Origin: Martelella lutilitoris
GTDB lineage: Bacteria; Pseudomonadota; Alphaproteobacteria; Rhizobiales; Rhizobiaceae
NCBI RefSeq assembly: GCF_016598595.1
Contig: NZ_CP066786.1
Coordinates: 3,619,501 to 3,683,500 of the forward strand
Length of the DNA stretch: 64,000 bases
Reading direction: 5' to 3'
Made by a program: the position numbers and the translations under genes. Positions 13,428-32,576 of this stretch are shown here, piece by piece. The first letter of the stretch is position 1; every line of letters starts with the position of its first letter. The notes below the pieces were generated by a model. That model was not told where the DNA came from. It ran no database searches and saw nothing but the letters and a program-made list of their open reading frames with translations.

Positions 13428-14858
<1,431 letters not shown>

Positions 14859-14874
14859 CACATGGCTCCGATGT

Positions 14875-16224
14875 TCAAAGAAGATGGCGCAGCGGCTCGT
14901 CGATACGACCGGCAAAACCGGTCACGAAAGCAAGGGCCGCCGCCTCGCTCAATTGGCCGTCGTGATAGTCGAGCCCGATAATGAAATCGTCACGGTCGCG
15001 GCCGATGGTCAAAACCGGCGCTGTTTCGGCCCGGGCCGTGGCGCGGGTCACCGCGGAGCCCGTCAGGTCGCGCAGGATGATGTCCGCATCACCCTCTTCG
15101 GCTTCCTCGAGTGTCGCGCCAAGGCGCATGCGGTCCGCATTGGCAAAGCGCATTATTGACCCGCCCGGCATCTCGATGCCGGCAACGATCCTGTCCCTCG
15201 CGTCGGCGCTGCGCAGGGCGGCGGAGGCGAAGCCGAGCCAGATCCGGGACGACGACGGCGCATCGACTGTCTCCTTCCGAAGCCAGTCCATAAGGGCCGA
15301 AAAGCCTGAGGCCGGAACCCGCGCCTCGATATGCAGCGGCACGGCCGCCGGGACAGCAGCAGGCGAAGTGCCTACCCGTGCCCCCAATCCGCGCAGGATT
15401 TCAAGGTCGGACGCATGATAGGGCTGGGCCACGCCCTCCTCGGCAAGCCGCGCCAGATCAAGGCCCTGCTCCCGCGCAAGCCGCCGCGCTTTCGGCGAGG
15501 CAAGGATGCGGCCCTCGACCGGGGCGACGGGTTTCGCTGGCGCCTTGGGCTTCGACGGTGCCTTGCTATTGTCTGATGCCGCGTCTTCCGCTTTTGCGGC
15601 AGGAGCCGACTGTGGCTGAGGCGCGGCTTTGGCGCTGCGCCGCACCGGCCTTTCCGGTTCTTCAGCCGAAATCAACGCGATCACCGAGCCGACGGGAACG
15701 GCCTCGTTCGCCTCGGCCAGAATGGCGGCGACATAGCCGTCATGGCCGGCCTCGACCTCCATGACCGACTTGTCGGTCTCGACCTCCAGCAGGATATCGC
15801 TTGCGGAGACCTTGTCGCCCGGTTCCCTGCACCAGTTGACGATCAGCCCGGTATCCTGCGCCATGCCAAGCGCGGGCATGATGATCTCCGCGCCCTCCGG
15901 CAGGGTTTCCTCTCCGGCCTTTCCGGCGTCCTCCTTTGCGTTCGCTTCAGGCGCTTCGCCGGACATGGCCTCCTGAACGTCGTCGGCACTCTCGACGATC
16001 ACGGCCACGACGGAACCCACCGGCACGTCGTCACCGTCACCCGCCGAAACGGCGCTCAGAAAGCCATCGGCAGCCGCCTCGACCTCCATCACCGCCTTGT
16101 CGGTCTCCACCTCCATGATCGCCTCGCCGGAAGAAACGGGCTCGCCGCTCTTCTTCAGCCAGCGGACGATCTTGCCGGTGTCCTGCGCCATGCCGAGCGC
16201 GGGCATTATCACATCATGCGGCAT
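14875..16224 (-). CDS. Di-lipoyl E2-like carrier protein with degenerate acyltransferase domain
   Basis: The start at 16224 overlaps the E1beta stop by 11 bases. The 449-residue protein has two lipoyl domains: residues 1-80 (VETDKAVMEVEA, lipoylated Lys) and about 113-190 (VETDKSVMEVEA). A Pro/Ala/Lys-rich linker follows. Next is a subunit-binding domain (ASPKARRLAREQGLDLARL) at about 262-300, then a shortened E2 catalytic-like domain. Where active E2s carry DHRxxDG this one has LDYHDGQLSEAAALAF, so the catalytic His motif is lost. It looks like a lipoyl carrier for the separate E2 at 12518-13426. No E3 gene is present; a housekeeping lipoamide dehydrogenase would be needed. Confidence 0.88.
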   Translation of the reverse strand: MPHDVIMPALGMAQDTGKIVRWLKKSGEPVSSGEAIMEVETDKAVMEVEAAADGFLSAVSAGDGDDVPVGSVVAVIVESADDVQEAMSGEAPEANAKEDAGKAGEETLPEGAEIIMPALGMAQDTGLIVNWCREPGDKVSASDILLEVETDKSVMEVEAGHDGYVAAILAEANEAVPVGSVIALISAEEPERPVRRSAKAAPQPQSAPAAKAEDAASDNSKAPSKPKAPAKPVAPVEGRILASPKARRLAREQGLDLARLAEEGVAQPYHASDLEILRGLGARVGTSPAAVPAAVPLHIEARVPASGFSALMDWLRKETVDAPSSSRIWLGFASAALRSADARDRIVAGIEMPGGSIMRFANADRMRLGATLEEAEEGDADIILRDLTGSAVTRATARAETAPVLTIGRDRDDFIIGLDYHDGQLSEAAALAFVTGFAGRIDEPLRHLL

Positions 16225-17209
16225 GGAAAAGCTCCCCGCGGACAGAAAGCCGCGCCTTCTCCGCCACCCGTTCCGGCGTCGGCACGGTGATATCCTCCAG
16301 CGCCGGCGAGAACGGCACCGGCACATCCATCGCCCCCATGCGCAAGACCGGCGCATCGAGGTGATAGAAGGCCTTCTCGGAAATGCGGCTGGCGATCTCG
16401 CCGGTGATGCCGAAGCTTTGGTGCCCCTCGTCGATCACCATCGCCCGGGACGTCTTCTTCACCGAGTTGAGGATGGTTTCCTCGTCCAACGGCACGATGG
16501 TGCGCGGATCGATGACTTCCGCCGAAATGCCTTCCTTTGCCAGAAGGTCGGCCGCGGCAAGCGCCGCCTGCACCATGGAAGAGGTGGCAACCAGCGTGAT
16601 ATCCCGGCCCTCGCGCAGGACCGCGGCCTCGCCGAAGGGGATCAGATATTCCTCCTCCGGCACCTCTGCCTTGTCGTTATACATCAGCTTGTCTTCGAAG
16701 ATGACGACCGGATTGTTGTCGCGGATCGCCGTCTTCATCAGCCCCTTGGCCTCATAGGCCGACGAGGGAAGAGCCACCTTCAGGCCCGGAATATGGGCAA
16801 CAAGCGCATGCAGCGACTGGGAGTGCTGCGCGGCAGAACGCCGCGTCGCCCCCAGATTGGTGCGCACCACCAGCGGCACGTTGAGCTTGCCGCCGGACAT
16901 GTAGTGGATCTTGGCCGCCTGGTTGCAAAGCTGGTCCATGATCAGGAACAGGAAGTCGCCGAACATCAAATCGACGATCGGCCGCGCCCCGGTCATCGCC
17001 GCACCGACGGCAAGCCCCATGAAGCCCGGTTCGGCAATCGGCGTATCGATAACCCGCTCGGTTCCGAACTCCTCCACAAGACCCGACAACACCTTGAACG
17101 GCGTGCCCGCCTCGGCGATATCCTCGCCGATGATGAAGGTCGTGGGGTCGCGGCGCAGTTCCTCCGCCAACGCCTCGTTCACGGCCTGGGAAAGCGTGAT
17201 CTTTCGCAT
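16214..17209 (-). CDS. Thiamine-diphosphate dehydrogenase E1 subunit beta (acetoin dehydrogenase-like)
   Basis: This 331-residue protein is the beta subunit of a heterotetrameric alpha2beta2 2-oxo-acid/acetoin dehydrogenase E1. It starts MRKITLSQAVNEALAEELRR, followed by FIIGEDIAEAGTPFKVLSGLVEEFG, RVIDTPIAEPGFMGLAVGAAMTGARPI, NQAAKIHYMSGG, the QHSQSLHALVAHIPGLKVALPSSAYEAKGL block and the C-terminal domain with EVIDPRTIVPLD. Length is normal. The E1alpha gene lies 12 bases upstream and the lipoyl gene overlaps the end, a tight translational unit. Confidence 0.94.
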   Translation of the reverse strand: MRKITLSQAVNEALAEELRRDPTTFIIGEDIAEAGTPFKVLSGLVEEFGTERVIDTPIAEPGFMGLAVGAAMTGARPIVDLMFGDFLFLIMDQLCNQAAKIHYMSGGKLNVPLVVRTNLGATRRSAAQHSQSLHALVAHIPGLKVALPSSAYEAKGLMKTAIRDNNPVVIFEDKLMYNDKAEVPEEEYLIPFGEAAVLREGRDITLVATSSMVQAALAAADLLAKEGISAEVIDPRTIVPLDEETILNSVKKTSRAMVIDEGHQSFGITGEIASRISEKAFYHLDAPVLRMGAMDVPVPFSPALEDITVPTPERVAEKARLSVRGELFHAA

Positions 17210-17221
17210 GGATTTTCCTCC

Positions 17222-18205
17222 TCAGTCCGCAAAGACGTGCATGTCGACTTCGTGCGCGTCCGGGTATTTCGCCTTCAGCGCATAGTCGACGGCGGCCGCC
17301 GCATCGTCGCGGATCTCGGCCTTCAGGGCCTCAAGCTCCTCGCTCGAAGCAATCCCCTCACCGGTCAGCCACTTCGAGAATTTCTCGATCGGATCGCGGT
17401 TTTCCTTCCATTCCTTCTCCTCGGCCTTGGAACGGTAGTATTCGCGGTTGATGTCGCCGACATGGTGACCGTGATAGCGATAGGTCTGCAGCTCGATGAA
17501 GAACGGCCCCTCGCCGCGACGGCAGCGCGCGGCAAGTTCGCGGGCCAGCTCGTTGACGGCGAGAACATCCTGCCCGTCGACCTCGAAGGCCTCGATACCG
17601 AAGGCCCGCGCCCGATCGGTGATCGAGCCGGCCGCGATCTCGGCCGTTGCCGTATACTCCGAATAGCCGTTGTTCTCGCAGGCATAGATCACCGGCAGGT
17701 TCCAGAGCGCCGCCATGTTCATGACCTCGTACAGAAGACCCTGCGCCGTTGCCCCGTCACCGAAGAAGCAGACCGTCACGTCGTCGGATTTCTGCAGCTT
17801 GGCGCGGAGCGCCGAGCCGGTGGCAATACCCATGGAACCGCCGACGATGGCATTGGCGCCGAGATTGCCGTGGCTCTGGTCGGCGATGTGCATCGACCCG
17901 CCCTTGCCCCGGCAATAGCCTTCCTCCTTGCCGAGGAGTTCGCAGAACATCGCCTGGAACTCTGCCCCCTTGGCAACGCAATGGCCGTGGCCGCGATGGG
18001 TGGAGGTGATCCGGTCGCTGTCGGTCAACGCCTCGCAGATGCCGACGGCAACCGCCTCCTCGCCGGAATACATATGCGTCAGCCCCGGCATCTTGGCGGA
18101 GAGATAAAGCTGGTTGGCATTATCCTCGAAGGTGCGGATGCGGACCATCTGCCGGTACATGCGCAGATAGTCCTCGCGATTATGCTTGTTGTCTGAAGCG
18201 CTCAT
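17222..18205 (-). CDS. Thiamine-diphosphate dehydrogenase E1 subunit alpha (acetoin dehydrogenase AcoA-like)
   Basis: This 327-residue protein binds thiamine diphosphate and performs the decarboxylating or C-C cleaving step. The TPP motif GDGATAQGLLYEVMNMAALWNLPVIYACENN (GDG-x-NN) is intact at about residues 147-177. THMYSGEEAVAVGICEALTDSDRITSTHRGHGHCVAKG and GKGGSMHIADQSHGNLGANAIVGG resemble the acetoin dehydrogenase (AcoA) branch rather than pyruvate or branched-chain E1s. The active-site region YRYHGHHVGD is conserved. It likely acts on an alpha-hydroxyketone; the substrate is not determinable from sequence. M24 gene 13 bases upstream, E1beta 12 bases downstream. Confidence 0.93.
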   Translation of the reverse strand: MSASDNKHNREDYLRMYRQMVRIRTFEDNANQLYLSAKMPGLTHMYSGEEAVAVGICEALTDSDRITSTHRGHGHCVAKGAEFQAMFCELLGKEEGYCRGKGGSMHIADQSHGNLGANAIVGGSMGIATGSALRAKLQKSDDVTVCFFGDGATAQGLLYEVMNMAALWNLPVIYACENNGYSEYTATAEIAAGSITDRARAFGIEAFEVDGQDVLAVNELARELAARCRRGEGPFFIELQTYRYHGHHVGDINREYYRSKAEEKEWKENRDPIEKFSKWLTGEGIASSEELEALKAEIRDDAAAAVDYALKAKYPDAHEVDMHVFAD

Positions 18206-18218
18206 GACGTTTCCCGCC

Positions 18219-19517
18219 TCAATACCGGTTGGCGATCGGCAGTTCTTCTGCCGGAAACAGCGAGATCACCTCGCACCCCTTGTCGGTGACGACGACCTCC
18301 TCCTCGATGCGGGCGGCGGAGAAGCCGTCGGCGGCCGGGCAATAGGTTTCCAGCGCGAACACCATGCCGGTCTGGATTTCCATGGGGTTGTCGAGCGACA
18401 CCGCCCGCGAGATGATCGGGCGCTCGTGCAATGCCAGCCCCAGACCATGGCCGAACTGAAGGCCGAAAGCGGACAGTTCGTCCGGAAAGCCGAATTCTTC
18501 CGCCTTGGGCCATGCCTTGGCCACCACATCCGTGGTCACGCCCGGCTTGATCAGCGCGATCGACGCATCGATCCATTCGCGCGCCTTCACATAGGCATCG
18601 ACCTGGGCAGGCGTCGAGCGGCCGATATTGAAGGTCCGGTAATAGCAGGTGCGGTAGCCTTGATAGCTCTGCAGGATATCGAAGAAGGCCTGATCGCCGG
18701 GCCGGAACAGCCGGTCGGTGAAATTGTGCGGATGCGGATTGCAGCGCTCGCCGGAAATGGCGTTGATCGCCTCCACATCATCGGAGCCCATTTCATAGAG
18801 CATCTTGTTGGACAGCGCGACGATCTCGTTCTCGCGCACGCCCGGTTTCAGCTCCTCGTAGATCATGTGATAGACGCCATCGACCATGCTGGCGGCCTGG
18901 GTGAGAAGCTGGATCTCGTCCCAGTTCTTGATCTCGCGCGCCGACAGCATGATCTGCTGGCCGTCAACGACGTTGATGCCTGCAGCCTTCAGCGCCTCGA
19001 ACATGGCGGTTTCGGCATAGTCGACGCCGACCGGCATATCGGCCATGCCCGCATCGCGGATGAGACCGGCGATCTCCTCGGCATATTTCCGCATCAGCCC
19101 GAAGGAGGGCGGGATGGTGCCACGCATGCCGACGACGCCCGCCCGGCAATGATCCGGCACCAGCCAGTCGGAAAACTTGCGGTGATGCACGGCGGCGGAG
19201 CCGAAATCCCAGACATAAGGCGCGTCATCGCCCGTCAGCAGGCAGAAGCGGCACATCTTGTCGCGTTCCCACTCGCCGATCTTGGTGGCGGAGACATAGC
19301 GGATATTGTTGACGTCGAAGAGCAGCAGCGAGCCCGCATCGCTGTTCTTCAGCGCCTGGCGGGTGCGCGACAGGCGGTAGCGCCTCAGCCGGTCATGATC
19401 GACGCGGCGTTCGAAATCGACGGACGTATGGCCCCATGCGGGAAGCCGCCCCTCCCAGTTCCAGTTGGGCTGAAGGTCCTGCGGGGTGAGCACATTGGGT
19501 GTCAGTGCGCGGTTCAT
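18219..19517 (-). CDS. M24-family (creatinase/Xaa-Pro dipeptidase fold) protein with an altered metal site
   Basis: This 432-residue protein has the N-terminal creatinase-like domain (LLLFDVNNIRYVSATKIGEW) and the C-terminal pita-bread domain from about residue 190. The metal-ligand signature normally reads DxG...D with Asp 11 residues apart; here it is FFDILQSYQGYRTCYYRTFN, so the second Asp is Cys. The His in FGHGLGLALHE and both Glu residues (ALETYCP, RIEEEVVVT) remain. Such proteins include metal-free creatinase-type C-N hydrolases and DddP-like lyases as well as peptidases, so a peptidase label is unsafe. It sits between an SDR and the E1 genes of the catabolic operon. Confidence 0.85.
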   Translation of the reverse strand: MNRALTPNVLTPQDLQPNWNWEGRLPAWGHTSVDFERRVDHDRLRRYRLSRTRQALKNSDAGSLLLFDVNNIRYVSATKIGEWERDKMCRFCLLTGDDAPYVWDFGSAAVHHRKFSDWLVPDHCRAGVVGMRGTIPPSFGLMRKYAEEIAGLIRDAGMADMPVGVDYAETAMFEALKAAGINVVDGQQIMLSAREIKNWDEIQLLTQAASMVDGVYHMIYEELKPGVRENEIVALSNKMLYEMGSDDVEAINAISGERCNPHPHNFTDRLFRPGDQAFFDILQSYQGYRTCYYRTFNIGRSTPAQVDAYVKAREWIDASIALIKPGVTTDVVAKAWPKAEEFGFPDELSAFGLQFGHGLGLALHERPIISRAVSLDNPMEIQTGMVFALETYCPAADGFSAARIEEEVVVTDKGCEVISLFPAEELPIANRY

Positions 19518-19594: not shown

Positions 19595-20401
19595 CTACTG
19601 GATCACCCAGCCGCCATCGATATGGATCATCTGGCCGGTCATGTAGTCGCTGTCGTGGCTGGCGAGGAATGCGGCCGTACCCTTCACGTCGTCGGGATAG
19701 GAGACCTTTTTCAGCGCCAGAGCATTCTCCGCGAGGTCTTCGAAAGCCTGGCCTTCCTTCTGCTTGAAACCCATCTCGACCAGATCCTTGTCGAGCTGCG
19801 CCCAGAGCGGCGTCTTGACCACGCCCGGCGCATAGCCGTTGACGGTGATATTGTGCTCGGCGAGCGTGACCGCGCCGCAATGGGTGAGCGCCAGGCAGCC
19901 ATATTTCGAGGTGCAGTAAACGGTGACATCGTAAAGCGGTTTGCGCGACGCGACCGAACCGACATTGATCAGCTTGTAGACATGCTCCTGCTTGCCCTGC
20001 TTGATCATCTGCCGGGCCACCGCCTGCATGCCGAGCCACATGCCCTTGGTGTTGACGTTCATGATGAAGTCCCAATTGTCCTCATCGATGTCCATGAAGA
20101 ATTTCGGCTTGTTGACCCCGGCATTGAACAGGCCGACATTGATCATGCCGAAGGCCTCGACGGTGGCGGCAACCGCCGCCTCATTGTCATCACGGCTCGT
20201 CACATCCATCTTCACCGCAATCGCCTGGCCGTTGCCGGCGGCGTTGATCTTGTCAGCGAGTGCCTTGCCCAGTTCGAGGTCAAGATCGCCGATGCAGACA
20301 TTGGCGCCCTGCTCGGCGAAATGCTCGGCATTGGTCGCGCCCATGCCCTGGGCGCCGCCTGTGATCAGGATGTTTTTGCCTTTGAGGCGATTGGGGTCCA
20401 T
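19595..20401 (-). CDS. SDR family NAD(P)-dependent oxidoreductase (catabolic operon)
   Basis: This 268-residue classical SDR has the cofactor motif ITGGAQGMGATNAEHFAEQG (residues 13-32), Asp-rich CIGDLDLELG suggesting NAD preference, FNAGVNKPKFFMDIDEDNW, the catalytic Ser in NVGSVASRKPL and Y-x-x-x-K as YCTSKYG. The C-terminus FLASHDSDYMTGQMIHIDGGW matches polyol/3-oxoacyl dehydrogenase-type SDRs. It shares the DSDYMTGQ tail and the AGVNKP/AGVNRP element with the second SDR at 23538, so the two look like paralogues placed on both sides of the divergon. Likely oxidises a hydroxyl group of the imported compound. AGGAGAG lies before the ATG. Confidence 0.92.
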   Translation of the reverse strand: MDPNRLKGKNILITGGAQGMGATNAEHFAEQGANVCIGDLDLELGKALADKINAAGNGQAIAVKMDVTSRDDNEAAVAATVEAFGMINVGLFNAGVNKPKFFMDIDEDNWDFIMNVNTKGMWLGMQAVARQMIKQGKQEHVYKLINVGSVASRKPLYDVTVYCTSKYGCLALTHCGAVTLAEHNITVNGYAPGVVKTPLWAQLDKDLVEMGFKQKEGQAFEDLAENALALKKVSYPDDVKGTAAFLASHDSDYMTGQMIHIDGGWVIQ

Positions 20402-20446
20402 GGTCTCTCCTCCCGTGTTGACCGGCCCTTTGACTTTGCAAAGAGC

Positions 20447-22273
20447 CTATGTGACGCGTTTTCGCATGGCCTCTTCCGCGCGCGTCTGAGCGCGCGAAAG
20501 GGCCTGTTTCGGACTGACGATGCCGCGCAGCATGTCGTGCAGCTCATGGCCGCAAATCTGGATGATGTCGGAAATTTCCGGGATCGGCGGGCGCGGCCAG
20601 AACTGCAGCTCGTCGCGCCAGGACATCTGGTCGACGCTCTCGAAGATCGGCGACAGGCGGCGCACTTCCGGGTCGGAACCGACGGAATAGCGCGGCGCGG
20701 TGCGGCTGCCGTTCTGGATGAAAAGTTTCTGCGCTTCCGGCGAGGTGAAGGCGACCAGCGCCTCGACAGCCTCGTCCACCCGCTCCTCCGGCAGGTTGGC
20801 GGGAACGCCGAAGACGTAGCCGCCGACCGGCGCGATCGGCGTGCCGCCCGGCCCGTGCGGATGCGGCAGATAGCCTGTATTGCCGAAGGCGGGCGATTGC
20901 GGATCGAGCTCGAAATAGGGCGCCAGAAGCGTATAGCCATAGGCCATCGCCACCTTGCCCTCGGCATAGGGCCGCACGCGCTCGTACCAGGACATGGACA
21001 GGATGTCGGGCGGCGAGAATTCCATCAGCGCCAGCAGATATTCCGCGGCTTCGAGCGCCTTCGGCGTGTCGATCGTCGGATGAAGATCATCGCGCTCCAG
21101 ATGGTCGGCGTCGAAACCGCCGGCGATTTCCTTCAGGTTGATGATCGGCTGGCCGAAATCGGCGCAGGTCATCATGAAGGTGTGGCCGAGCGCCGTTCCG
21201 CGCGCGGCGTTCCAGGCAATGCCGTAGACGCCCATGCGCGGCTCGTGCAGCCGGGCGGCAGCCTCGAGTACGGCCTCCGTGGTTTCCGGCGGCTCAAGGG
21301 CGGCTTCCGCGAACAGGTCGCGGCGATAGAAGAACAGCTCGGGCGTCGTCTGGCTCGGCACGCCATAGGCCACGCCGTCCCAATGAGCGGCGCGCCAGCC
21401 GGCCGTGTGAAAATCACCGGGGTCGAGCCTGTCGAGATCCATGATGGACGGCAGCGGCCGCAGAACGCCCTTCTTGACGAATTCGCCAAGCCAGGGCAGG
21501 TCGACGGCGATCAGATCGTAGCGGCTGACGGCGCGTTCGGCATTGCGCAGCGCCTCGCCGCGCAGACGGTCGATCGAAAAGGCGCGCTGATGGATATTGC
21601 AGCCGACCAGATGCTCGAACTGGCGCTTCAGATTGCTCATCACCATGAAGGTCGGGTCGCCATGGACGAGGATGCGCAGGCCGCCCGAAAGCTTCATCGG
21701 CGTCGGCAGCGCCTGCGGCGGGCCGATCAGCATCTTTCCAGGCTGGTACGAGCCGCCGAAATAATAGTCCGCGTTCTCCTGGGTGAAGCCGTCGGCGCCG
21801 AAACGCACGGCCGCCAGACGATGGATGCGACGGGCAAGCTGGCACCAGTTGTCCAGCATTTCCGGGCTTGGGTGCAGGGAAACGCTCTTGCCGGATTTCG
21901 AACGCGGGCGCTGTTCGACCGCGCCCGATTCCAGCAGTTCGGTGAGCTTGCGCGTCGCCGTCGCGTAAGGAACGCCGGAGGCCGCGATGATCGACGAGGG
22001 GATCACCATCCGCCCTTCCAGATGCCGGCGCAGAAGATGCAGGCACATGTTGAGATAGGGGTTGGGGGCGTTCGGCGTGGTGGCGTCATCGACCTCGACC
22101 AGCACATCTTCCATGAACCGCACGACGGCCTCCAGCTCGGCGGAAACGGAAGGTTTTGCCTCCGCTCCGCCGGCCACGGCAGCGCCATATCCATTTTGAA
22201 TATTTTGTGCGATATCCTGATTCATCTGTCCCGGCAAACCGTGCTCCGGTCTGCGCCTCGTTGGCGATGCCAT
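20447..22273 (-). CDS. Winged-helix regulator fused to a family-1 solute-binding-protein domain
   Basis: This 608-residue protein has no signal peptide. Residues about 50-150 form a winged helix-turn-helix (PSSIIAASGVPYATATRKLT, then AVEQRPRSKSGKSVSLHPSP as wing). From about residue 198 to the end it reads as an extracellular solute-binding protein family 1: RILVHGDPTFMVMSNLKRQF, YDLIAVDLPWLGEFVKKGVL, WDGVAYGVPSQTTPELFFYR, EGKVAMAYGYTLLAPYF and AVEALVAFTSPEAQKLFIQN. A cytoplasmic sensor-regulator is inferred. E. coli SgrR is the known precedent for HTH plus solute-binding domain, but with a family-5 domain. AGAGGA upstream supports the 22273 start; an ATG at 22225 is an alternative. It is divergent from a CUT2 importer and precedes the SDR by 45 bases. 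Confidence 0.87.
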   Translation of the reverse strand: MASPTRRRPEHGLPGQMNQDIAQNIQNGYGAAVAGGAEAKPSVSAELEAVVRFMEDVLVEVDDATTPNAPNPYLNMCLHLLRRHLEGRMVIPSSIIAASGVPYATATRKLTELLESGAVEQRPRSKSGKSVSLHPSPEMLDNWCQLARRIHRLAAVRFGADGFTQENADYYFGGSYQPGKMLIGPPQALPTPMKLSGGLRILVHGDPTFMVMSNLKRQFEHLVGCNIHQRAFSIDRLRGEALRNAERAVSRYDLIAVDLPWLGEFVKKGVLRPLPSIMDLDRLDPGDFHTAGWRAAHWDGVAYGVPSQTTPELFFYRRDLFAEAALEPPETTEAVLEAAARLHEPRMGVYGIAWNAARGTALGHTFMMTCADFGQPIINLKEIAGGFDADHLERDDLHPTIDTPKALEAAEYLLALMEFSPPDILSMSWYERVRPYAEGKVAMAYGYTLLAPYFELDPQSPAFGNTGYLPHPHGPGGTPIAPVGGYVFGVPANLPEERVDEAVEALVAFTSPEAQKLFIQNGSRTAPRYSVGSDPEVRRLSPIFESVDQMSWRDELQFWPRPPIPEISDIIQICGHELHDMLRGIVSPKQALSRAQTRAEEAMRKRVT

Positions 22274-22318
22274 TTGTTGTCCTCTCTATTTGTCCAAAAC
22301 CGCGATCCTGAAATATCG

Positions 22319-22366
22319 CTAAAAAATCCAATACGGATAATTAAAAATTCATTCTGGATATTTTAG
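22319..22366. promoter_or_regulatory. Candidate operator of the divergent catabolic locus
   Basis: CTAAAAAATCC (22319-22329) and GGATATTTTAG (22356-22366) are an inverted repeat matching at 10 of 11 positions, in an AT-rich gap between the regulator gene and the importer operon. A third GGATA lies at 22335-22339, exactly 21 bases (two helical turns) before the one at 22356. The placement suits binding by the divergent winged-helix regulator. Confidence 0.55.
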
Positions 22367-22483
22367 GCAGGTCCATTGCCGCCGAATTAGTGGTGTATGA
22401 AAGCCCATTGCCCGGGAGAGGCCCGACCGGTTGCCGGAGGGCCGAGGCAATGCATTCATTTTATCGTTTGGGAGGAACGGAAT

Positions 22484-23446
22484 ATGAGATTTTCAGCCAG
22501 GCTGACCTTGGCCGCAACGACCGCGATTGCGGGGCTCGCCCTTGCAGGCGCCGCATCCGCCGAGAGCTACAAGATCGGCATCACGCAGAACAATGTCGGC
22601 GTTGACAGCTATCAGACGACCTATGAGCAGGCCTTCATCAACGCGGCCGACGCCAACCCCGACGTCGAAACCGTTGTCCTCGACGCAGGCGGCGACGTCG
22701 CCCGTCAGATCGCCCAGGTGGAAGACTTGATCCAGCAGAAGGTCGACGCCATCATCATCTGGCCGACCAATGGCGAGGCCGTCATTCCGGCCGTGCGCAA
22801 GGCCCACAAGGCCGGTATTCCGGTGATCGTCACCAATTCCAACATCGCGGAGCCGGGCTTCGATTTCGTCGCTTCCTTCTCCGGCCCGGACAACATCACG
22901 CAGGGCGCGCGCTCGGCCGAGATCATGTGCGACAAGTTCAAGGACATGGGCATCGCCGATGAAGCCAAGATCGTGCAGATCTCCGGCCAGCCGGGCTATA
23001 CGACGGCGATCGAGCGCGCCAAGGGCTTTGAGGATCGCCTTCCGGAAGTCTGCCCGAACGTGACGCTGATGGAAACGCAGCCCGGCGACTGGAACCGGGA
23101 AAAGTCGCAGAAGGTGATGGAAGCCTTCCTCGTCAAATATGACGACATCGACGGCGTCTATGCCGGCGACGACAATATGGGCGTCGGCGCGCTCAACGCC
23201 GCCAAGGCCGCCGGCCGCGACGGCATCATCTTCGTCGGCGCGACAAACTTCTCCGTCGGCTACGAGGCCATGGAAAACGGCGATTACTGGGGCTCGATCT
23301 ACCAGTCGCCGGTCGATGACGCCGAGGCCGCGCTGCAGACGGCAATCGACGTGCTCGACGGCAAGGACGTGCCCTTCCTCAACTATTTCGACACGCCCAA
23401 GATCACCCAGGACAATATGGACCAGTTCACCAAGCCGGTGTTCTAA
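22484..23446 (+). CDS. CUT2 sugar ABC transporter substrate-binding protein
   Basis: The ATG at 22484, eight bases after GGGAGGAA, gives a 320-residue periplasmic protein. The Sec signal is RFSARLTLAATTAIAGLALA with cleavage near ASAES. The mature part is a type-I periplasmic binding fold of the ribose/galactose group: YKIGITQNNVGVDSYQTTYE, VEDLIQQKVDAIIIWPTNGE, GIPVIVTNSNI, TTAIERAKGF and GVYAGDDNMGVGALNAAKAAG. The ligand is probably a sugar, polyol or related small molecule. It heads the rightward operon; SDR, two permeases and an ATPase follow. Confidence 0.93.
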   Translation: MRFSARLTLAATTAIAGLALAGAASAESYKIGITQNNVGVDSYQTTYEQAFINAADANPDVETVVLDAGGDVARQIAQVEDLIQQKVDAIIIWPTNGEAVIPAVRKAHKAGIPVIVTNSNIAEPGFDFVASFSGPDNITQGARSAEIMCDKFKDMGIADEAKIVQISGQPGYTTAIERAKGFEDRLPEVCPNVTLMETQPGDWNREKSQKVMEAFLVKYDDIDGVYAGDDNMGVGALNAAKAAGRDGIIFVGATNFSVGYEAMENGDYWGSIYQSPVDDAEAALQTAIDVLDGKDVPFLNYFDTPKITQDNMDQFTKPVF

Positions 23447-23463
23447 GCCTTATCCCTGATTGC

Positions 23464-23500
23464 GGCGGGGCCGGGCGCAAGGCCCGCGCCCCCGCCTTTT
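23464..23500 (+). terminator. Strong hairpin with T tract after the binding-protein gene (attenuator)
   Basis: GGCGGGG (23464-23470) pairs with CCCCGCC (23490-23496), with inner arms CGGGC and GCCCG, and four T residues follow. Located between the binding-protein gene and the rest of the operon, it likely causes partial termination or protects the upstream mRNA, giving excess binding protein, a common arrangement in ABC operons. Confidence 0.65.
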
Positions 23501-23537
23501 CCAAATCAACCAAACATCAAATAACGGGAGAGGCTCA

Positions 23538-24335
23538 GTGGGTCGTGTCTCTGGACGTTCCTGCATCGTGACGGGAGCGGCGCGCGGTATCGGCCGCGCG
23601 ATTGGCGAAGCGCTGCTCGACGAGGGCGCGGATGTCTGCTTTGCCGACATCAACGGCGAAAGCCTCAAGGCGGTCGAGGAGCAGAACCGGGACCGCGCCG
23701 CGCGAAACGGCGGGCGGGTTACCCATGCCATCGTCGACGTGACGAAGCGCGAACAGGTGCGCGCGATGATCGCCCATGCGGTTTCGGTCTTCGGCAAGCT
23801 CGACGTCAAGTTCAACAATGCCGGCGTCAACCGGCCGATGAATTTTCTCGACGTGACCGAGGAGAACTGGAATTTCATCATGTCCGTCAACGGTCTCGGC
23901 TGCCTGATCGGCATGCAGGAGGCGGCGCGGCAGATGATCAGCCAGAGGACCGGCGGCAAGATCATCAACACGACCTCGATCGCCGGCAGGCAGGGCTTCG
24001 ACAATGTCGCGCCCTACTGCGCATCGAAGGCGGGCGTGATATCGCTGATCCAGTCCGGCGCGCGCGATCTGGCCAAACACAACATCACCGTAACCGGATT
24101 TGCGCCCGGCGTGGTGGCAACGGAAATGTGGGAACAGGTCGACCGCGATCTGATGGAGATTGGCGCGGCGGAAAAGCCCGGCCAGGCCATGGCCGAATTT
24201 TCCGCCGACATTCTGCGCGGCAAGGTGGCCCGGCCGGACGACATTACCGGCACGACCACCTTTCTCGCCTCGCCCGACAGCGATTACATGACCGGGCAGG
24301 TAGTCATGATCGACGGCGGCATGACGCTCGTTTGA
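23538..24335 (+). CDS. SDR family NAD(P)-dependent oxidoreductase (importer operon)
   Basis: A GTG start at 23538, five bases after GGGAGAGG, gives 265 residues. Classical SDR motifs are VTGAARGIGRAIGEALLDEG, FNNAGVNRPMNFLDVTEENW, the catalytic Ser in NTTSIAGRQGF and YCASKAG. The tail FLASPDSDYMTGQVVMIDGG is shared with the SDR at 19595-20401. The family includes sorbitol/L-iditol-type dehydrogenases; the substrate is presumably the compound imported by the surrounding transporter or its oxidation product. Its insertion between binding-protein and permease genes shows it belongs to the same pathway. Confidence 0.92.
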   Translation: MGRVSGRSCIVTGAARGIGRAIGEALLDEGADVCFADINGESLKAVEEQNRDRAARNGGRVTHAIVDVTKREQVRAMIAHAVSVFGKLDVKFNNAGVNRPMNFLDVTEENWNFIMSVNGLGCLIGMQEAARQMISQRTGGKIINTTSIAGRQGFDNVAPYCASKAGVISLIQSGARDLAKHNITVTGFAPGVVATEMWEQVDRDLMEIGAAEKPGQAMAEFSADILRGKVARPDDITGTTTFLASPDSDYMTGQVVMIDGGMTLV

Positions 24336-24405: not shown

Positions 24406-25380
24406 GTGGCGAATTTTACGCGAAAAGACGTGGGCGCATTGCTGGCCCGGCAAGGGATCCTGATCGCCTTCGTGGTGTTCATGATCGGCTTTGCCCTGAT
24501 CAACCAGCGCTTTGTCGCGCCGGACAATATTCTGGGCGTGATCCGCTCCTCGGCCATTCTGGGCGTCATCGCGCTCGGCGTCACCTTCGTCGTCATCGGC
24601 GGCAATCTCGACCTGTCCGTCGGTTCGATGATGTCCTTTTCCACCATTGTCGTGCTCGACCTGCATGACAGGCTCGGCCCGGTTCTCGGCATTCCGGCGA
24701 TGTATGCGATGACGCTGGCGCTCGGCGCCTTCAACGGCTTCCTGATCGGTTACCTCCGGCTCAACTCGCTGATCGTCACGCTCGGCATGCTGTCGGCGAT
24801 CTACGGCCTGACGCTGACCTATTCCGGCGGCAAGAATATGGATATCGCCGACAAGGAACACACCTGGTTTTCCGTCTTCGGCCAGGGCGACATTCTCGGC
24901 ATCCCCTCCCCGATCGTCATCTTCGCGGGTCTGGCCATCATTCTTGCCCTGCTGCTTGCCAAGACGCCCTTCGGCCGCAAGGTCTATGCCGTCGGCGGCA
25001 ACGGAGTTGCGGCGACCTTTTCCGGCATTCCGCGCGCCCGTATCGTGTTCTTCACCTATCTGATCTCCTCCTTCTGCGTGGCGACCGCCGGCCTCATCCA
25101 GGCCAGCCGCTCGCTCGGCAGCCAGAACACGGTCGGCCAGGGGATGGAACTGGAGGTTCTGGCGGCCGTCATCCTCGGCGGCGCGTCGCTGCTCGGCGGA
25201 TCCGGCACCGTGTTCAAGACCGTCATCGGCGTGCTGATCCTCGGCTTTATCCAGAATGGACTTCTGCTCGCCGGCCTGCAGTTCTACGTCCAGTATGTCG
25301 TCACCTGGGTGATCATCATTCTTGCGGTCTGGCTCGATATCGCCGCCAAGCGCGGCCGTCTCTGGTCGCCGATTGCGTGA
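24406..25380 (+). CDS. CUT2 ABC transporter permease (RbsC-like), first subunit
   Basis: A GTG start after GGGAGGAGC gives 324 residues with about nine hydrophobic segments, the size of ribose-type permeases. The signature region ALGVTFVVIGGNLDLSVGSM (about 49-68) and the later VLAAVILGGASLLGGSGTV are diagnostic of RbsC/XylH/AraH proteins. It forms the membrane channel together with the second permease, so the importer probably has a heteromeric membrane part. Confidence 0.93.
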   Translation: MANFTRKDVGALLARQGILIAFVVFMIGFALINQRFVAPDNILGVIRSSAILGVIALGVTFVVIGGNLDLSVGSMMSFSTIVVLDLHDRLGPVLGIPAMYAMTLALGAFNGFLIGYLRLNSLIVTLGMLSAIYGLTLTYSGGKNMDIADKEHTWFSVFGQGDILGIPSPIVIFAGLAIILALLLAKTPFGRKVYAVGGNGVAATFSGIPRARIVFFTYLISSFCVATAGLIQASRSLGSQNTVGQGMELEVLAAVILGGASLLGGSGTVFKTVIGVLILGFIQNGLLLAGLQFYVQYVVTWVIIILAVWLDIAAKRGRLWSPIA

Positions 25381-25390
25381 GGAGATGACC

Positions 25391-26392
25391 ATGACCAGCC
25401 AGAGCTACAGCAAATACATCAAGCAGGGCGCGATCTGGGGTTTCATCCTCGTCGAGCTGATCTTCTTCTCCGTCGCCGGGCACTTCCTGTCGCTGTCGGA
25501 CACCGCCTTCATGGATTTCGACAACATGCTGCTGCTTCTGAAGCAGTCGGTCCCGATCGGCATCATCGCCATCGGCATGACGGTGATCATGATCAACGGC
25601 AATATCGACCTTTCCGTCGGCGCGACCTTCGCGCTCGCCGGCATCGTCATGCTGGATTCGATGACATGGCCGATCTTTGCAAGCCTCGGCGATTGGGTGA
25701 TCCCGGTCTCCTGGGCGCTGGCGCTTCTGACGGGCGCCGTCCTCGGTGGGCTCAACGGCCTCATCGTCTGGAAAACCGGCGTTGACGCCTTCATCGTCAC
25801 GCTCGGCGCCATGCTCGGCTATCGCGGCCTCGTGTTCATGTATAACGGCGAGAACCCGACCTCGCATCTTAACTGGACACTGGTTGATTTCGCCGAAGCG
25901 CAGTTTCTCGGCATCCACACCGCAAGCTGGTTCTTCCTCGCCGTCACCGCCATCATCTGGCTGGTGATGACGAAGACCGTGCATGGCCGCAATGCCTATG
26001 CGATCGGCGACAATCGCGAGGCGGCGATCAATGCCGGCATCCGCGTCGGCCCGCATTTCCTGCGCAATTTCATCCTGATCGGCTTTCTCGCGGCATTGAG
26101 CGCCGTGGTGTTCTACTCCGAAAGCGGCTCGGTGAACCCCAATGACGGTGAGCTTTATGAATTGTGGGCGATCACTGCGGTGGTCCTCGGCGGCACCAAG
26201 CTTGCCGGCGGTTCGGGCTCGATCCTCTCCACCTTCGGCGGCGTCATCGCCATCCAGCTTCTGCGCAAGGGCCTCGGCTATATCGGCGCGGATACCGAAA
26301 CCGTCAACCTGGTCATCGGGCTCATTCTCATCGCCGTCCTGTTTCTGGACCGCCAGTTGAACCGCAAGGGCAGAGGGGAGCTCAGGATATGA
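25391..26392 (+). CDS. CUT2 ABC transporter permease (RbsC-like), second subunit
   Basis: The ATG at 25391 is placed seven bases after GAGGAG, better than the ATG at 25385, which abuts it. The 333-residue product has IAIGMTVIMINGNIDLSVGA and LWAITAVVLGGTKLAGGSGS, the same two signatures as the first permease, with about nine membrane spans. The stop codon overlaps the ATPase start in an ATGA arrangement, implying translational coupling. Confidence 0.93.
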   Translation: MTSQSYSKYIKQGAIWGFILVELIFFSVAGHFLSLSDTAFMDFDNMLLLLKQSVPIGIIAIGMTVIMINGNIDLSVGATFALAGIVMLDSMTWPIFASLGDWVIPVSWALALLTGAVLGGLNGLIVWKTGVDAFIVTLGAMLGYRGLVFMYNGENPTSHLNWTLVDFAEAQFLGIHTASWFFLAVTAIIWLVMTKTVHGRNAYAIGDNREAAINAGIRVGPHFLRNFILIGFLAALSAVVFYSESGSVNPNDGELYELWAITAVVLGGTKLAGGSGSILSTFGGVIAIQLLRKGLGYIGADTETVNLVIGLILIAVLFLDRQLNRKGRGELRI

Positions 26393-27900
26393 GTGACATC
26401 AAACCGACGCTGAGACTCGACAATATCGTCAAGACCTTTCCGGGCGTGCGTGCGCTCGACGGCGTCTCGCTCGACATCCGCCCCGGCGAGGTCCATGCGC
26501 TTGTCGGCGAAAACGGCGCGGGCAAATCGACGCTGATGAAGGTGCTCGGCGGCATTCACCAGCCGGACGGCGGCCGCATCCTGATCGACGAGCAGCCGGT
26601 GGTGATGACCTCGCCGCTGCAAGCGAAATCCAAGGGCGTCGTCTTCATCCACCAGGAACTCAGCCTCGCAACCGAGCTCACGGTGGCGGAAAACATCTTC
26701 CTCGGCGAATTGCCGCTGAAGCGGTTCGGCCTTGTTGACTGGAAGCGATTGCATGACGACACGCAGGCGATCCTCGACAAGCTGAGGACGGGGTTTACGC
26801 CGGAAACCCGCGTCGGCGAACTCTCCATCGCCAACCAGCAGATGGTGGAAATCGCCCGCGCGCTGACCGTCGACGCCAAGGCTGTGATCTTCGATGAGCC
26901 GACGGCATCGCTGACGGATGCGGAAAAGGTCGTGCTCTTCGATGTGATCGCCGACCTGAAAGCCCAGGGCGTCGGCATCATCTATATCTCCCACCGCATG
27001 GAGGAGATCTTCAACATCACCGACCGCATCACCGTCCTGCGCGACGGCGAGTGCCGGGGCACGCTGGTGACGGCGGAAACGAACGAGGACGAGATCACCC
27101 GGCTGATGATCGGCCGCTCGCTCGACCTCACCCGAAACCACGAACATGTACAGCTGGGCGAGGTCGCGCTCGCTGTCGAGAACCTCTCCTGCAACGGGCT
27201 TTTTCGCGATATCAGCTTCGATGTCCGAAGGGGCGAGGTCGTCGGCTTTTACGGCCTCGTCGGCGCCGGCCGCACGGAAATCGCCGAAACGCTCTTTGGC
27301 CTTCGCGAGCCGAGCGGCGGGCGCATTCTGCTGCAGGGCAAGCCGGTGAAGCTGCATTCGCCGATCGACGCGATCAGGAACGGCATCTCGCTGGTGCCGG
27401 AAGACCGCAAGGGCCAGGGCCTGGTGCTCGGCATGAACTGCCGCGACAACATGACCTTGCCGCAGGTCGGCGATCTAACCGCCGGGCCTTTCGTCTCGGA
27501 CGGCGCGGAGATCGCCATCTTCGACCAGTATCGCGACAAGCTCGATATCCGCACGCCCGGCTGGCGGCAACTCGCGGGCAATCTTTCCGGCGGCAACCAG
27601 CAGAAGATCGTCATCGGCAAATGGCTCTCCATGCATCCCGATATCCTGATCGTGGACGAGCCGACGCGCGGCATCGATGTCGGCTCGAAATCGGAGATCC
27701 ACAACCTCATCCGGGCGCTCGCCCGTCAGGGCTACGCAGTCATCGTCATCAGTTCGGAAATGCCGGAGGTGCTGCATGTCTCCGACCGGATCGTCGCCAT
27801 GTATAGCGGCCGGATCACCGAGATCTTCACAGCCGAAGAGGTATCCGAAGACAGGCTGATCCAGGCCATTTCCGGCCTCGAGGTCGAGAAGGCGGGCTGA
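26389..27900 (+). CDS. CUT2 ABC transporter ATP-binding protein (RbsA-like, two ATPase domains)
   Basis: The ATG at 26389 overlaps the permease stop by four bases. The 503-residue protein has two ABC domains. The N-terminal one has Walker A GENGAGKST, a degenerate signature (LSIANQQMVEIARAL), and Walker B VIFDEPTAS. The C-terminal one has FYGLVGAGRTE instead of a full Walker A, as usual in RbsA/MglA, then signature LSGGNQQKIVIGKWL and Walker B ILIVDEPTRGIDVG. It drives uptake together with the two permeases. The next gene starts within its TGA. Confidence 0.95.
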   Translation: MSDIKPTLRLDNIVKTFPGVRALDGVSLDIRPGEVHALVGENGAGKSTLMKVLGGIHQPDGGRILIDEQPVVMTSPLQAKSKGVVFIHQELSLATELTVAENIFLGELPLKRFGLVDWKRLHDDTQAILDKLRTGFTPETRVGELSIANQQMVEIARALTVDAKAVIFDEPTASLTDAEKVVLFDVIADLKAQGVGIIYISHRMEEIFNITDRITVLRDGECRGTLVTAETNEDEITRLMIGRSLDLTRNHEHVQLGEVALAVENLSCNGLFRDISFDVRRGEVVGFYGLVGAGRTEIAETLFGLREPSGGRILLQGKPVKLHSPIDAIRNGISLVPEDRKGQGLVLGMNCRDNMTLPQVGDLTAGPFVSDGAEIAIFDQYRDKLDIRTPGWRQLAGNLSGGNQQKIVIGKWLSMHPDILIVDEPTRGIDVGSKSEIHNLIRALARQGYAVIVISSEMPEVLHVSDRIVAMYSGRITEIFTAEEVSEDRLIQAISGLEVEKAG

Positions 27901-28769
27901 TGCGGATCGGATTTGCAGGGCTTGGCCGCATGGGCGCGGCGATGGCGCGCAATCTGGTGCGCGCCGGACATGACGTGACCGTCTGGAACCGTTCCGCCGG
28001 CAAGGCGACGGGCTTTGCGACGGAGACCGGCGCGCGCGCGGCTGAAACGCCGCGGGAACTGGCGGACGATGCTGACGTCGTCATCACCATGCTGGCGGAC
28101 GATGCCGCTTCCGAGACGGTGCATTTTGGCGAGGACGGGCTGTTTGCCGGCAAGCGCGCGCGATGGTTTGTCGAGATGGGTACGATGAGCCCCGATCATA
28201 TCGCCCGCCTGGCTTTGACGGCCCCCGAGAGCGCAACAGTGATCGACGCGCCCGTTTCCGGCGCGACAAAGGCGGCCGAAGATGCGGCTCTGCTGATCAT
28301 GGCCGGATGCGACGCCGAAACTGGCGCGACGCTCCTTCCGGTGTTCGATGCGCTCGGCAAAAGGACCATTTTACTCGGAGAAAGCGGCCGCGGCGCGGTG
28401 ATGAAGCTCTCCGTCAATTCCCTGATCCACGGCATCAACCAGACGCTTGCCGAAGCCATGACGCTTGCGGAGGCAGCGGGCATTGCCCCGGAAGCGGCCT
28501 TTGACGTGATCGAGGCCTCGGCGGCGGCGGCTCCGATGCTGAAATACCGCCGCCCGCTCTATCTCAATGAAACCGCCCATGACGTGACGTTTACGGTTGC
28601 CCTTGCCCGCAAGGACATGGAAGTCACGGCGGCGCTTGCGGACCAATTCGGCACCGCCATGCCGCAGGGGCTTGTGACGCTCGAGAAACTGAATGAGGCC
28701 GAGCGCGCCGGCTATGGCGCCCGCGACATGGCCTCGATCCTCAATTTCATGCGAAAGGAAAAGACATGA
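27900..28769 (+). CDS. NAD(P)-dependent beta-hydroxyacid dehydrogenase (3-hydroxyisobutyrate dehydrogenase family)
   Basis: The ATG uses the last base of the ATPase stop. The 289-residue product has the Rossmann motif GFAGLGRMGAAMARNLVRAG at the N-terminus. The substrate loop is DAPVSGATKAAEDAAL near residue 117, and the catalytic Lys block GRGAVMKLSVNSLIHGINQ is near residue 163. Family members oxidise 3-hydroxyisobutyrate, tartronate semialdehyde relatives or similar beta-hydroxyacids. It is translationally coupled to importer and ThuA genes, so is part of the same pathway. It differs from the paralogue at 30289-31152. Confidence 0.92.
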   Translation: MRIGFAGLGRMGAAMARNLVRAGHDVTVWNRSAGKATGFATETGARAAETPRELADDADVVITMLADDAASETVHFGEDGLFAGKRARWFVEMGTMSPDHIARLALTAPESATVIDAPVSGATKAAEDAALLIMAGCDAETGATLLPVFDALGKRTILLGESGRGAVMKLSVNSLIHGINQTLAEAMTLAEAAGIAPEAAFDVIEASAAAAPMLKYRRPLYLNETAHDVTFTVALARKDMEVTAALADQFGTAMPQGLVTLEKLNEAERAGYGARDMASILNFMRKEKT

Positions 28770-29473
28770 AGGCCGTCCTTTTTGTCGGTGGCTGGGAAGG
28801 CCACGCGCCGAGCGAATTCTCGGACTGGTATGCCGATCTGCTCAAGGAAAACGGCTTCAGCGTCGATGTCTACGACACGATGGAGCCGCTCGAACGGCCG
28901 GGCGACCTCGCCGGCGTCGACCTCATCACCCCGATCTGGTCATCGGCGCGCTCCGGCCACCGCGAGGAATTCGGCACGATGACCAAGCCGCAGGAAGACG
29001 GCCTGCTGAAGCTGATCGGCGATGGTTGCGGCATTGCCGGCTGGCACGGTCATATGGGCGATGCCTTTCGCGATCGGCCGACCTATCATTTCCTCATCGG
29101 CGGCCAGTTCGTCGCCCACCCGCCCGGCTGGCCCGACAACCTGCAGCCGCGCGAGGACTATATCGACTACGATGTCACCATCTGCCGACCCGCCGACCCG
29201 ATCGTCGCGGGCATCAGGAGCTTCCGGCTGCGCTCCGAGCAGTATTACATGCTGACGGACCCGTCGAACGAGGTTCTCGCGACCACGACCTTTTCCGGCG
29301 ACCATCTCTGGTGGATCGAGGGCACGGTCATCCCCGTCGTGTGGAAGCGCCGCTGGGACAAGGGCCGCGTCTTCTACTGCTCCATCGGCCATGAGCTTGC
29401 CGACCTGCAGGTGCCGCAGGTGACCGAGATCATCCGCCGGGGAGCGCTTTGGGCGGCGCGCGGCGGGGCCTGA
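28766..29473 (+). CDS. ThuA-like domain protein
   Basis: This 235-residue protein overlaps the preceding gene by four bases. It has the ThuA (glutamine-amidotransferase-like) fold: VLFVGGWEGHAPSEFSDWYAD at the N-terminus, VDLITPIWSS near residue 52, GIAGWHGHMGDAFRDRPTYH near residue 88 and GRVFYCSIGHELADL near the end, with the family's conserved His residues. ThuA of Sinorhizobium meliloti acts with ThuB in trehalose 3-keto metabolism, so relatives are often linked with sugar oxidation and keto-sugar handling. Here it closes the importer operon; the nearest downstream gene is convergent. Confidence 0.85.
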   Translation: MKAVLFVGGWEGHAPSEFSDWYADLLKENGFSVDVYDTMEPLERPGDLAGVDLITPIWSSARSGHREEFGTMTKPQEDGLLKLIGDGCGIAGWHGHMGDAFRDRPTYHFLIGGQFVAHPPGWPDNLQPREDYIDYDVTICRPADPIVAGIRSFRLRSEQYYMLTDPSNEVLATTTFSGDHLWWIEGTVIPVVWKRRWDKGRVFYCSIGHELADLQVPQVTEIIRRGALWAARGGA

Positions 29474-32345: not shown

Positions 32346-32376
32346 GGTCTCTCCAATTTTGAGGTTCGTACCTCTA

Positions 32377-32406
32377 TTGACAGCAGAACAGGTCCGTGTC
32401 TATTGT
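32377..32406 (+). promoter_or_regulatory. Promoter of the CUT1 importer / alpha-xylosidase operon
   Basis: TTGACA (32377-32382), a consensus -35, is followed after 18 bases by TATTGT (32401-32406) as -10. The LacI operator begins at the next base, where the polymerase would start transcription. Confidence 0.6.
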
Positions 32407-32420
32407 CGTAAACGTTTACG
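32407..32420. promoter_or_regulatory. LacI-family operator
   Basis: CGTAAACGTTTACG is a perfect 14-bp palindrome with the central CG step and AAACGTTT core typical of LacI/GalR-family sites. It overlaps the expected start of transcription of the importer operon and lies 61 bases from the lacI-type start codon. Confidence 0.85.
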
Positions 32421-32576
32421 GAGCGTGTTTTAGCGATTTCGGGACTGAAAAGTCAATGACCGCGAAAGGGAGCCGCGTCTGCGGGAACTGAAGAGAAGCG
32501 GTACCGGGTCGCCAGAAAACGAAATCCGCCGAAGCCGGCCGAGGACGGCCGGAAAAACCTATACGGGAGGCAATTT

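What the first reader, a model, noticed from the sequence alone, without database searches (positions are those of the whole stretch)
20447..22273. One-component regulator made from a solute-binding protein fold
Seen: a 608-residue protein without signal peptide joins a winged-helix domain (about 50-150) to what reads as a complete family-1 extracellular solute-binding protein (about 198-600). Known: E. coli SgrR combines an HTH with a family-5 solute-binding domain, but a family-1 (sugar type) sensor is, as far as I know, little described. Inference: it is a cytoplasmic ligand sensor for the divergent importer and catabolic operon, recruited from a transporter subunit.
Basis: partly seen in the sequence, partly recalled or inferred. 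Interest (0 to 1): 0.8.

Follow-up and report, generated by a model that had tools for sequence, protein, structure and literature searches.

The report
Sugar-binding protein turned gene switch
A protein that databases label as an exported sugar-binding transport part looks instead like an internal gene switch: a DNA-binding head joined to a complete sugar-binding sensor, sitting next to a repeated DNA target and a conserved uptake-and-breakdown gene set.

The parts
20447..22273 (-). Regulator gene, 608 aa: winged helix + family-1 solute-binding protein
21800..22144 (-). Winged-helix domain, residues 44-158
   Evidence: model secondary structure; HTH Pfam matches in relatives
21926..21967 (-). 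Predicted recognition helix, residues 103-116
   Evidence: position in the model fold; T105 and R108 invariant in 12 diverse relatives
20462..21679 (-). Solute-binding protein (sensor) domain, residues 199-604
22327..22358 (.). Predicted operator: two 11-bp palindromes with starts 21 bp apart, in the divergent gap
   Evidence: only hit of the tandem pattern in the window
22484..23446 (+). Exported CUT2 solute-binding protein of the divergent importer
   Evidence: found in 80 of 80 loci
23460..24335 (+). SDR dehydrogenase 2 (start codon uncertain)
   Evidence: 69 of 80 loci
24406..25380 (+). CUT2 permease 1
   Evidence: 80 of 80 loci
25322..26392 (+). CUT2 permease 2 (start codon uncertain)
   Evidence: 80 of 80 loci
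26389..27900 (+). CUT2 ATPase (start read by hand from the translation)
   Evidence: a homologue of at least 40% identity in 80 of 80 loci
27900..28769 (+). 3-hydroxyacid dehydrogenase-like gene
   Evidence: 37 of 80 loci
28766..29473 (+). ThuA-like gene (name from my reading; no NCBIfam match)
   Evidence: a ThuA-domain gene is annotated in the matching place; 42 of 80 loci
19595..20401 (-). SDR dehydrogenase 1, directly downstream of the regulator
   Evidence: 80 of 80 loci
18219..19517 (-). M24-family hydrolase-like gene (DddP-like by score only)
   Evidence: 72 of 80 loci
17222..18205 (-). 2-oxoacid dehydrogenase-like E1 alpha
   Evidence: 68 of 80 loci
16214..17209 (-). 2-oxoacid dehydrogenase-like E1 beta
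   Evidence: 68 of 80 loci
14875..16227 (-). Lipoyl/E2-like gene (start codon uncertain)
   Evidence: 65 of 80 loci
13428..14843 (-). Succinate-semialdehyde-dehydrogenase-like ALDH (start codon uncertain)
   Evidence: 65 of 80 loci

Best explanation
It is a cytoplasmic one-component transcription regulator. Shown by computation: a winged helix is joined by a flexible linker to an intact family-1 (CUT1-type) sugar-binding protein lacking an export signal; it is encoded with one conserved importer-plus-catabolism module; a conserved tandem palindrome lies in the divergent gap. Inferred: two dimers bind the two palindromes two helical turns apart. When the imported solute or an early breakdown product enters the SBP cleft, domain closure changes DNA binding and switches the importer branch and the regulator-led catabolic run. 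The second palindrome would overlap the expected -35 of the regulator's own promoter, so it probably limits its own synthesis. I think ligand-relieved repression of both branches is somewhat more likely (about 0.55) than ligand-dependent activation.
For: Architecture and fold. No export signal by hydropathy in 298 of 301 relatives. Gene order: CUT2 SBP, both permeases and SDR1 in 80 of 80 loci; a CUT2 ATPase homologue in 80 of 80. The window's LacI-type regulator has no counterpart in the 80 loci as fetched, and among families seen in 15 or more loci I recognised no other regulator (queries were ORFs of at least 150 aa from 7 of the 80 loci, judged by eye). Operator: strict TCCA-N3-TGGA in 51 of 81 gap stretches against a mean of 0.53 and a maximum of 3 in 100 Markov shuffles. 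The relaxed tandem at 21-bp spacing is in 55 of 80 gaps, against 0-3 loci at any other spacing from 15 to 30 bp and 2 hits elsewhere in loci totalling 1,616,868 bp. Outside the set from which the motif was read, at least one copy lies in a non-coding gap in 10 of 13 loci examined, four of them with proteins about 30% identical. T105, R108, R122, H134 and P135 are invariant and G128, K129 and S130 nearly so in 12 diverse relatives.
Against: No binding, expression or ligand data. The window protein alone gives only sub-threshold HTH matches. The motif was found by eye and then counted on the same 80 loci; 25 of 80 lack the exact tandem, and L109, L114 and L119 lack the motif in the regions examined. 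A single relaxed palindrome is not specific: 27 in the 64-kb window; and strict single copies number 64 in the gaps but also 42 elsewhere in the 80 loci. No chance expectation was computed for the 13 outside loci. No sigma-70-like promoter was found in the gap, so the overlap with a -35 is inferred from weakly conserved columns. Genome-wide specificity of the motif could not be tested.
Confidence: 0.86

Rival explanations
1. It is a DNA-binding regulator, but its ligand is a catabolic intermediate or an unrelated metabolite, not the transported solute.
For: In three relatives from 1.4-Mb genomes the importer SBP differs greatly (about 22% identity) while SDR1 (57-59%) and M24 (66-67%) stay similar. 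Two distant relatives sit with catabolic genes and no importer annotated within 8 kb.
Against: In the close clade the importer is present in 80 of 80 loci. The sensor fold's nearest solved relatives are sugar-importer SBPs.
Confidence: 0.4
2. The palindromes belong to another regulator, and this protein acts only as a cytoplasmic solute-binding or accessory protein with a degenerate HTH.
For: HTH matches are weak in the window protein; binding was not measured.
Against: No other regulator was recognised as recurring in the 80 loci. Wing and recognition residues are among the most conserved. The palindrome accompanies the family in 10 of 13 further loci, down to about 30% identity.
Confidence: 0.07
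3. It is an ordinary exported SBP with an extended N-terminus, as databases annotate it.
For: Database names: 'extracellular solute-binding protein', 'multiple sugar transport system substrate-binding protein'.
Against: No hydrophobic N-terminus in 298 of 301 relatives. The neighbouring importer is CUT2 with its own SBP. The N-terminal domain is a conserved winged helix.
Confidence: 0.03

Closest known systems
DsvR (V. cholerae), a homologue of E. coli SgrR: N-terminal HTH + C-terminal SBP_bac5 domain (PMC13060122, passages read; for SgrR as a regulator PMC4021124, passages read; SgrR's own SBP domain is recalled)
   Same: One-component regulator with an N-terminal HTH and a solute-binding-protein sensor.
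   Different: Here the sensor is SBP family 1/8, not family 5; no SBP_bac_5 or SgrR-named model among the 17 families matched by 12 relatives up to E 1. Located with a CUT2 importer and catabolic genes.
LysR-type regulators (companion domain mainly periplasmic-binding-protein-like II; PMC5882156, passages read)
   Same: HTH joined to a type-II binding-protein fold.
   Different: No LysR HTH or LysR substrate model matched; here the sensor is a full-size sugar SBP of about 405 residues.
LacI/GalR regulators (recalled)
   Same: DNA-binding head fused to a sugar-binding-protein fold next to sugar genes.
   Different: LacI sensors relate to type-I (CUT2-like) SBPs (recalled); here the head is a winged helix and the sensor CUT1-like.
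CUT1 sugar-binding proteins 5iai, 1eu8, 4qrz
   Same: Whole fold and conserved core.
   Different: Those are transport subunits; this one lacks an export signal and carries a winged helix.
GntR-headed SBP fusions in Bacillota (recalled, not tested)
   Same: As I recall, HTH + family-1 SBP fusions occur there.
   Different: Not compared here; a different HTH family, and no call confirmed them.

Membership tests
SgrR | SBP_bac_5 sensor domain | tested here: not met
   Not among the 17 families matched by any of 12 relatives at E up to 1; SBP_bac_1 in 12 of 12
SgrR | SgrR-type N-terminal HTH model | tested here: not met
   Not among the 17 families matched by any of 12 relatives; the best HTH matches are MarR_2, HTH_IclR and HVO_A0261_N
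SgrR | Soluble HTH + SBP one-component layout | tested here: met
   Predicted layout and no hydrophobic N-terminus; solubility itself not tested
LysR-type regulators | LysR HTH and LysR substrate-binding models | tested here: not met
   No match at E up to 1
TrmB sugar regulators | TrmB HTH plus TrmB C-terminal sensor | tested here: not met
   TrmB HTH weak (6 of 12, best 0.018); no TrmB sensor model; the C-terminus is an SBP
MarR-like winged helix (domain level) | Winged-helix fold with MarR-type profile | tested here: inconclusive
   Helices plus wing hairpin in the model; MarR_2 in 7 of 12, best 4.7e-4; the domain was not fold-searched alone
Family-1 solute-binding protein (fold) | SBP_bac_1 profile and two-lobed SBP fold | tested here: met
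Family-1 solute-binding protein (transport subunit) | Export signal or lipoprotein anchor | tested here: not met
   Crude hydropathy scan: window protein and 298 of 301 relatives without a hydrophobic N-terminus
Autoregulated one-component regulator | Specific binding to its own divergent gap | not testable with these tools
   Only the conserved tandem palindrome is shown

The most novel reading that the evidence does not exclude
A large, unnamed alphaproteobacterial regulator family in which a complete CUT1-type sugar-binding protein has become the cytoplasmic sensor of a winged-helix switch bound to TCCR-N3-YGGA sites. In the clade seen here it reads the same solute inside the cell that a non-homologous CUT2 binding protein catches outside. 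Hundreds of database 'extracellular solute-binding proteins' would then be transcription factors.
Probability: 0.5. Interest if true: 0.72.

Novelty: new variant of a known kind. Interest (0 to 1): 0.62.

Why it matters
It shows how a transport protein can be turned into a gene switch, and it would reassign a large mis-annotated family from transport to regulation. It also gives a directly testable operator, a defined set of target genes of unknown substrate, and a natural sugar-sensor scaffold whose mechanism (flytrap closure controlling a winged helix) can be studied.

Tried and rejected
The first structure model, from 30 close relatives, was poor and was replaced by one from 88 sequences.

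Substrate of the pathway: not solved. The M24 gene is DddP-like by score (118.4 bits against a cut-off of 600), so I do not call it a DMSP lyase. Both SDR genes score best to the acetoin reductase model TIGR02415 but below its cut-off (216.7 and 246.6 against 304.35). One paper search for the pathway returned no paper. I recall that the nearest CUT2 SBP structures (5hko, 4rs3, 4rsm) and 5iai were solved with polyols; no call shows this, so it is a lead only.

Literature on HTH + SBP regulators: searches returned no paper; one search listed 4 of 4; one search listed 20 of 28, 12 of 57 and 12 of 45; one search covered the names SgrR and DsvR (25 of 214 listed). I saw titles and abstract beginnings, and passages of three papers. 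None of what I saw describes a winged helix joined to a family-1 SBP; unlisted papers and papers outside the library were not seen.

Riboswitch idea: no Rfam family reached its gathering score in window 20000-24000. A short conserved leader stem was seen but has little covariation support; the 20 leaders given were chosen from 53 because they showed the stem.

Error of mine: the ATPase query was translated one base out of frame, so its count (73 of 80) is void; the in-frame ORF comparison gives 80 of 80 at 40% identity or more. One search also misses genes where a locus ends early. The SDR2 count of 80 may include SDR1 cross-matches, so I use 69 of 80.

The shuffles were Markov samples from each sequence's own dinucleotides, not exact dinucleotide-preserving shuffles; the stretches ran between the two protein matches and so may include some coding ends; and the motif was chosen after looking at the sequences. 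For L117 and L118 the copy (TCCG-N3-CGGA) was read by eye in the gaps printed; the single-site pattern used there did not include it.

Full report

No export. The first 45 residues lack a hydrophobic stretch in 298 of 301 family proteins; the window's CUT2 and CUT1 SBPs score as hydrophobic in the same test. Of the three exceptions, P0017 has an N-terminal extension, and P0054 and P0060 seem, by eye, to score on residues in or next to the first winged-helix helix. This is a crude test, not a signal-peptide predictor.

How common. One search scored 7,996 candidates and found 1,724 proteins at E <= 1e-3; I saw the best 120, all with 67-95% identity and at least 91% coverage; those with names are called transport SBPs or hypothetical. 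A scan of species genomes gave 354 relatives among 414 stretches, of which the best 80 were kept. In drawn samples, 6 of 398 genomes of the phylum (E <= 1e-40) and 8 of 385 of the class (E <= 1e-35) carry the family; the window's own genome counts in both. A search with a 611-aa relative gave 356 hits, the best 120 mostly 567 aa. A search with a 561-aa relative from a 1.4-Mb genome gave 84 hits, of which the nearest are mostly 561 aa and others belong to the first two groups. Members of all three groups align over the winged helix and the SBP. The window's closest named relatives are Martelella (98-99% identity). Its genome holds one full-length copy; the other nine matches start at query residue 199 or later.

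Neighbourhood. In 80 of 80 loci the CUT2 SBP and two permeases lie on the divergent side and SDR1 is present; by the listing it directly follows the regulator except in L079, where a second regulator copy intervenes. A CUT2 ATPase homologue is in 80 of 80. M24 is found in 72, E1 alpha and E1 beta in 68, E2 and ALDH in 65, SDR2 in 69, ThuA in 42 and the hydroxyacid dehydrogenase in 37 of 80; some misses are locus ends. The window's LacI gene has no counterpart in the 80 loci as fetched, and among families found in at least 15 loci I recognised no other regulator (queries from 7 of the 80 loci). A complete example is Phaeobacter plasmid pGal_E78, where the gene is annotated 'extracellular solute-binding protein'. 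I looked at six of the more distant plasmid relatives. A Skermanella one (50%) has CUT2-type genes, SDR and ThuA. An Agrobacterium one (42%) lies among Gfo/Idh and isomerase genes with two importers. Rhizobium, Sinorhizobium and Loktanella ones (34-36%) sit with Gfo/Idh, YciI and '2,3-butanediol dehydrogenase' genes, the first two also with an intradiol dioxygenase and maleylacetate reductase. An Aminobacter one (30%) sits beside a CUT1 importer. Three relatives with 30-31% identity in 1.4-Mb genomes again have a CUT2-like importer, SDR1 and M24. I infer that the family tracks sugar- or polyol-like catabolism rather than CUT2 importers as such.

Operator. In the gap between the regulator and the CUT2 SBP, strict TCCA-N3-TGGA occurs in 51 of 81 sequences (80 loci plus the window) against a shuffle mean of 0.53 and maximum of 3; the window itself has degenerate copies (TCCAGAATGAA, TCCGTATTGGA). 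A relaxed tandem pattern at exactly 21 bp is in 55 of 80 gaps and at only 2 other places in loci totalling 1,616,868 bp; other spacings from 15 to 30 bp give 0-3 loci. In the window it has one hit, 22327-22358. Single copies are less specific: 27 relaxed ones in the window, and 42 strict ones outside the gaps against 64 inside. The motif was read from these loci, so those figures describe rather than test it. Outside them, 10 of 13 loci examined have at least one copy in a non-coding gap: L107 (a pair 21 bp apart), L110 (a pair 20 bp apart, in a gap not next to the regulator gene), L111, L112, L113, L115, L116 (downstream gap), L117 and L118 (by eye) and L120; L109, L114 and L119 have none in the regions examined. 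No chance expectation was computed for these. In the column consensus of the 56 sequences with the tandem, a third, weaker copy before the regulator's start and a TA-rich block about 11 bp past the operator appear. No consensus promoter was found.

Mechanism. Shown by computation: domain layout, absence of a hydrophobic export signal, gene company, conserved palindromes. Inferred: dimer binding at each palindrome, ligand-driven SBP closure, control of both branches, autoregulation, and the sign of regulation. The ligand is unknown.

Known relatives. DsvR, a homologue of SgrR, pairs an HTH with an SBP_bac5 domain (PMC13060122, passages read); SgrR is described as a transcription factor of glucose-phosphate stress (PMC4021124, passages read), and its own SBP domain is recalled. 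LysR regulators mainly carry a periplasmic-binding-protein-like II domain (PMC5882156, passages read). The window protein works like these but fails their sequence tests. The searches, with lists partly capped, showed no paper on a winged helix joined to a family-1 SBP; one search looked for the pathway and returned none. I recall GntR-headed family-1 fusions in Bacillota but could not test this, so I rate it a new variant of a known kind.

Noticed in passing
window 22406-22452 (+): The CUT2 SBP mRNA leader has a short closing stem (CATTGC...GCAATG), GATTGC...GCAATC in many relatives; 6 pairs, 2 with changes on both sides, in 20 sequences chosen from 53; covariation term only 0.02.
   Followed up: partly
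window 18219-19517 (-): M24-family gene nearest to DMSP lyase DddP among NCBIfam models (118 bits, cut-off 600) and well conserved in the module; its reaction is unknown.
   Followed up: partly
L114 (Phaeobacter pGal_E78): The regulator-importer-catabolism module lies on a plasmid typed conjugative, close to restriction-modification and toxin-antitoxin genes.
   Followed up: no
L079 8401 and 14339: A Methylocystaceae MAG locus has two regulator copies about 6 kb apart, one next to the CUT2 SBP and one next to SDR1.
   Followed up: no
L111-L113: Three genomes of about 1.4 Mb keep a relative (561 or 585 aa) with a CUT2-like importer, SDR1 and M24, and a single AT-rich palindrome in the gap.
   Followed up: partly
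L117, L118, L120: Distant relatives lie beside intradiol dioxygenase, maleylacetate reductase and YciI genes, suggesting regulation of a ring-cleavage pathway.
   Followed up: no
window 21438 and 25250: Two strict TCCA-N3-TGGA palindromes inside coding sequence (regulator and permease 1); possibly chance.
   Followed up: no
window 31287-33806: A second sugar system with a LacI-type regulator and an ordinary CUT1 SBP lies nearby; the LacI gene has no counterpart in the 80 loci as fetched.
   Followed up: no
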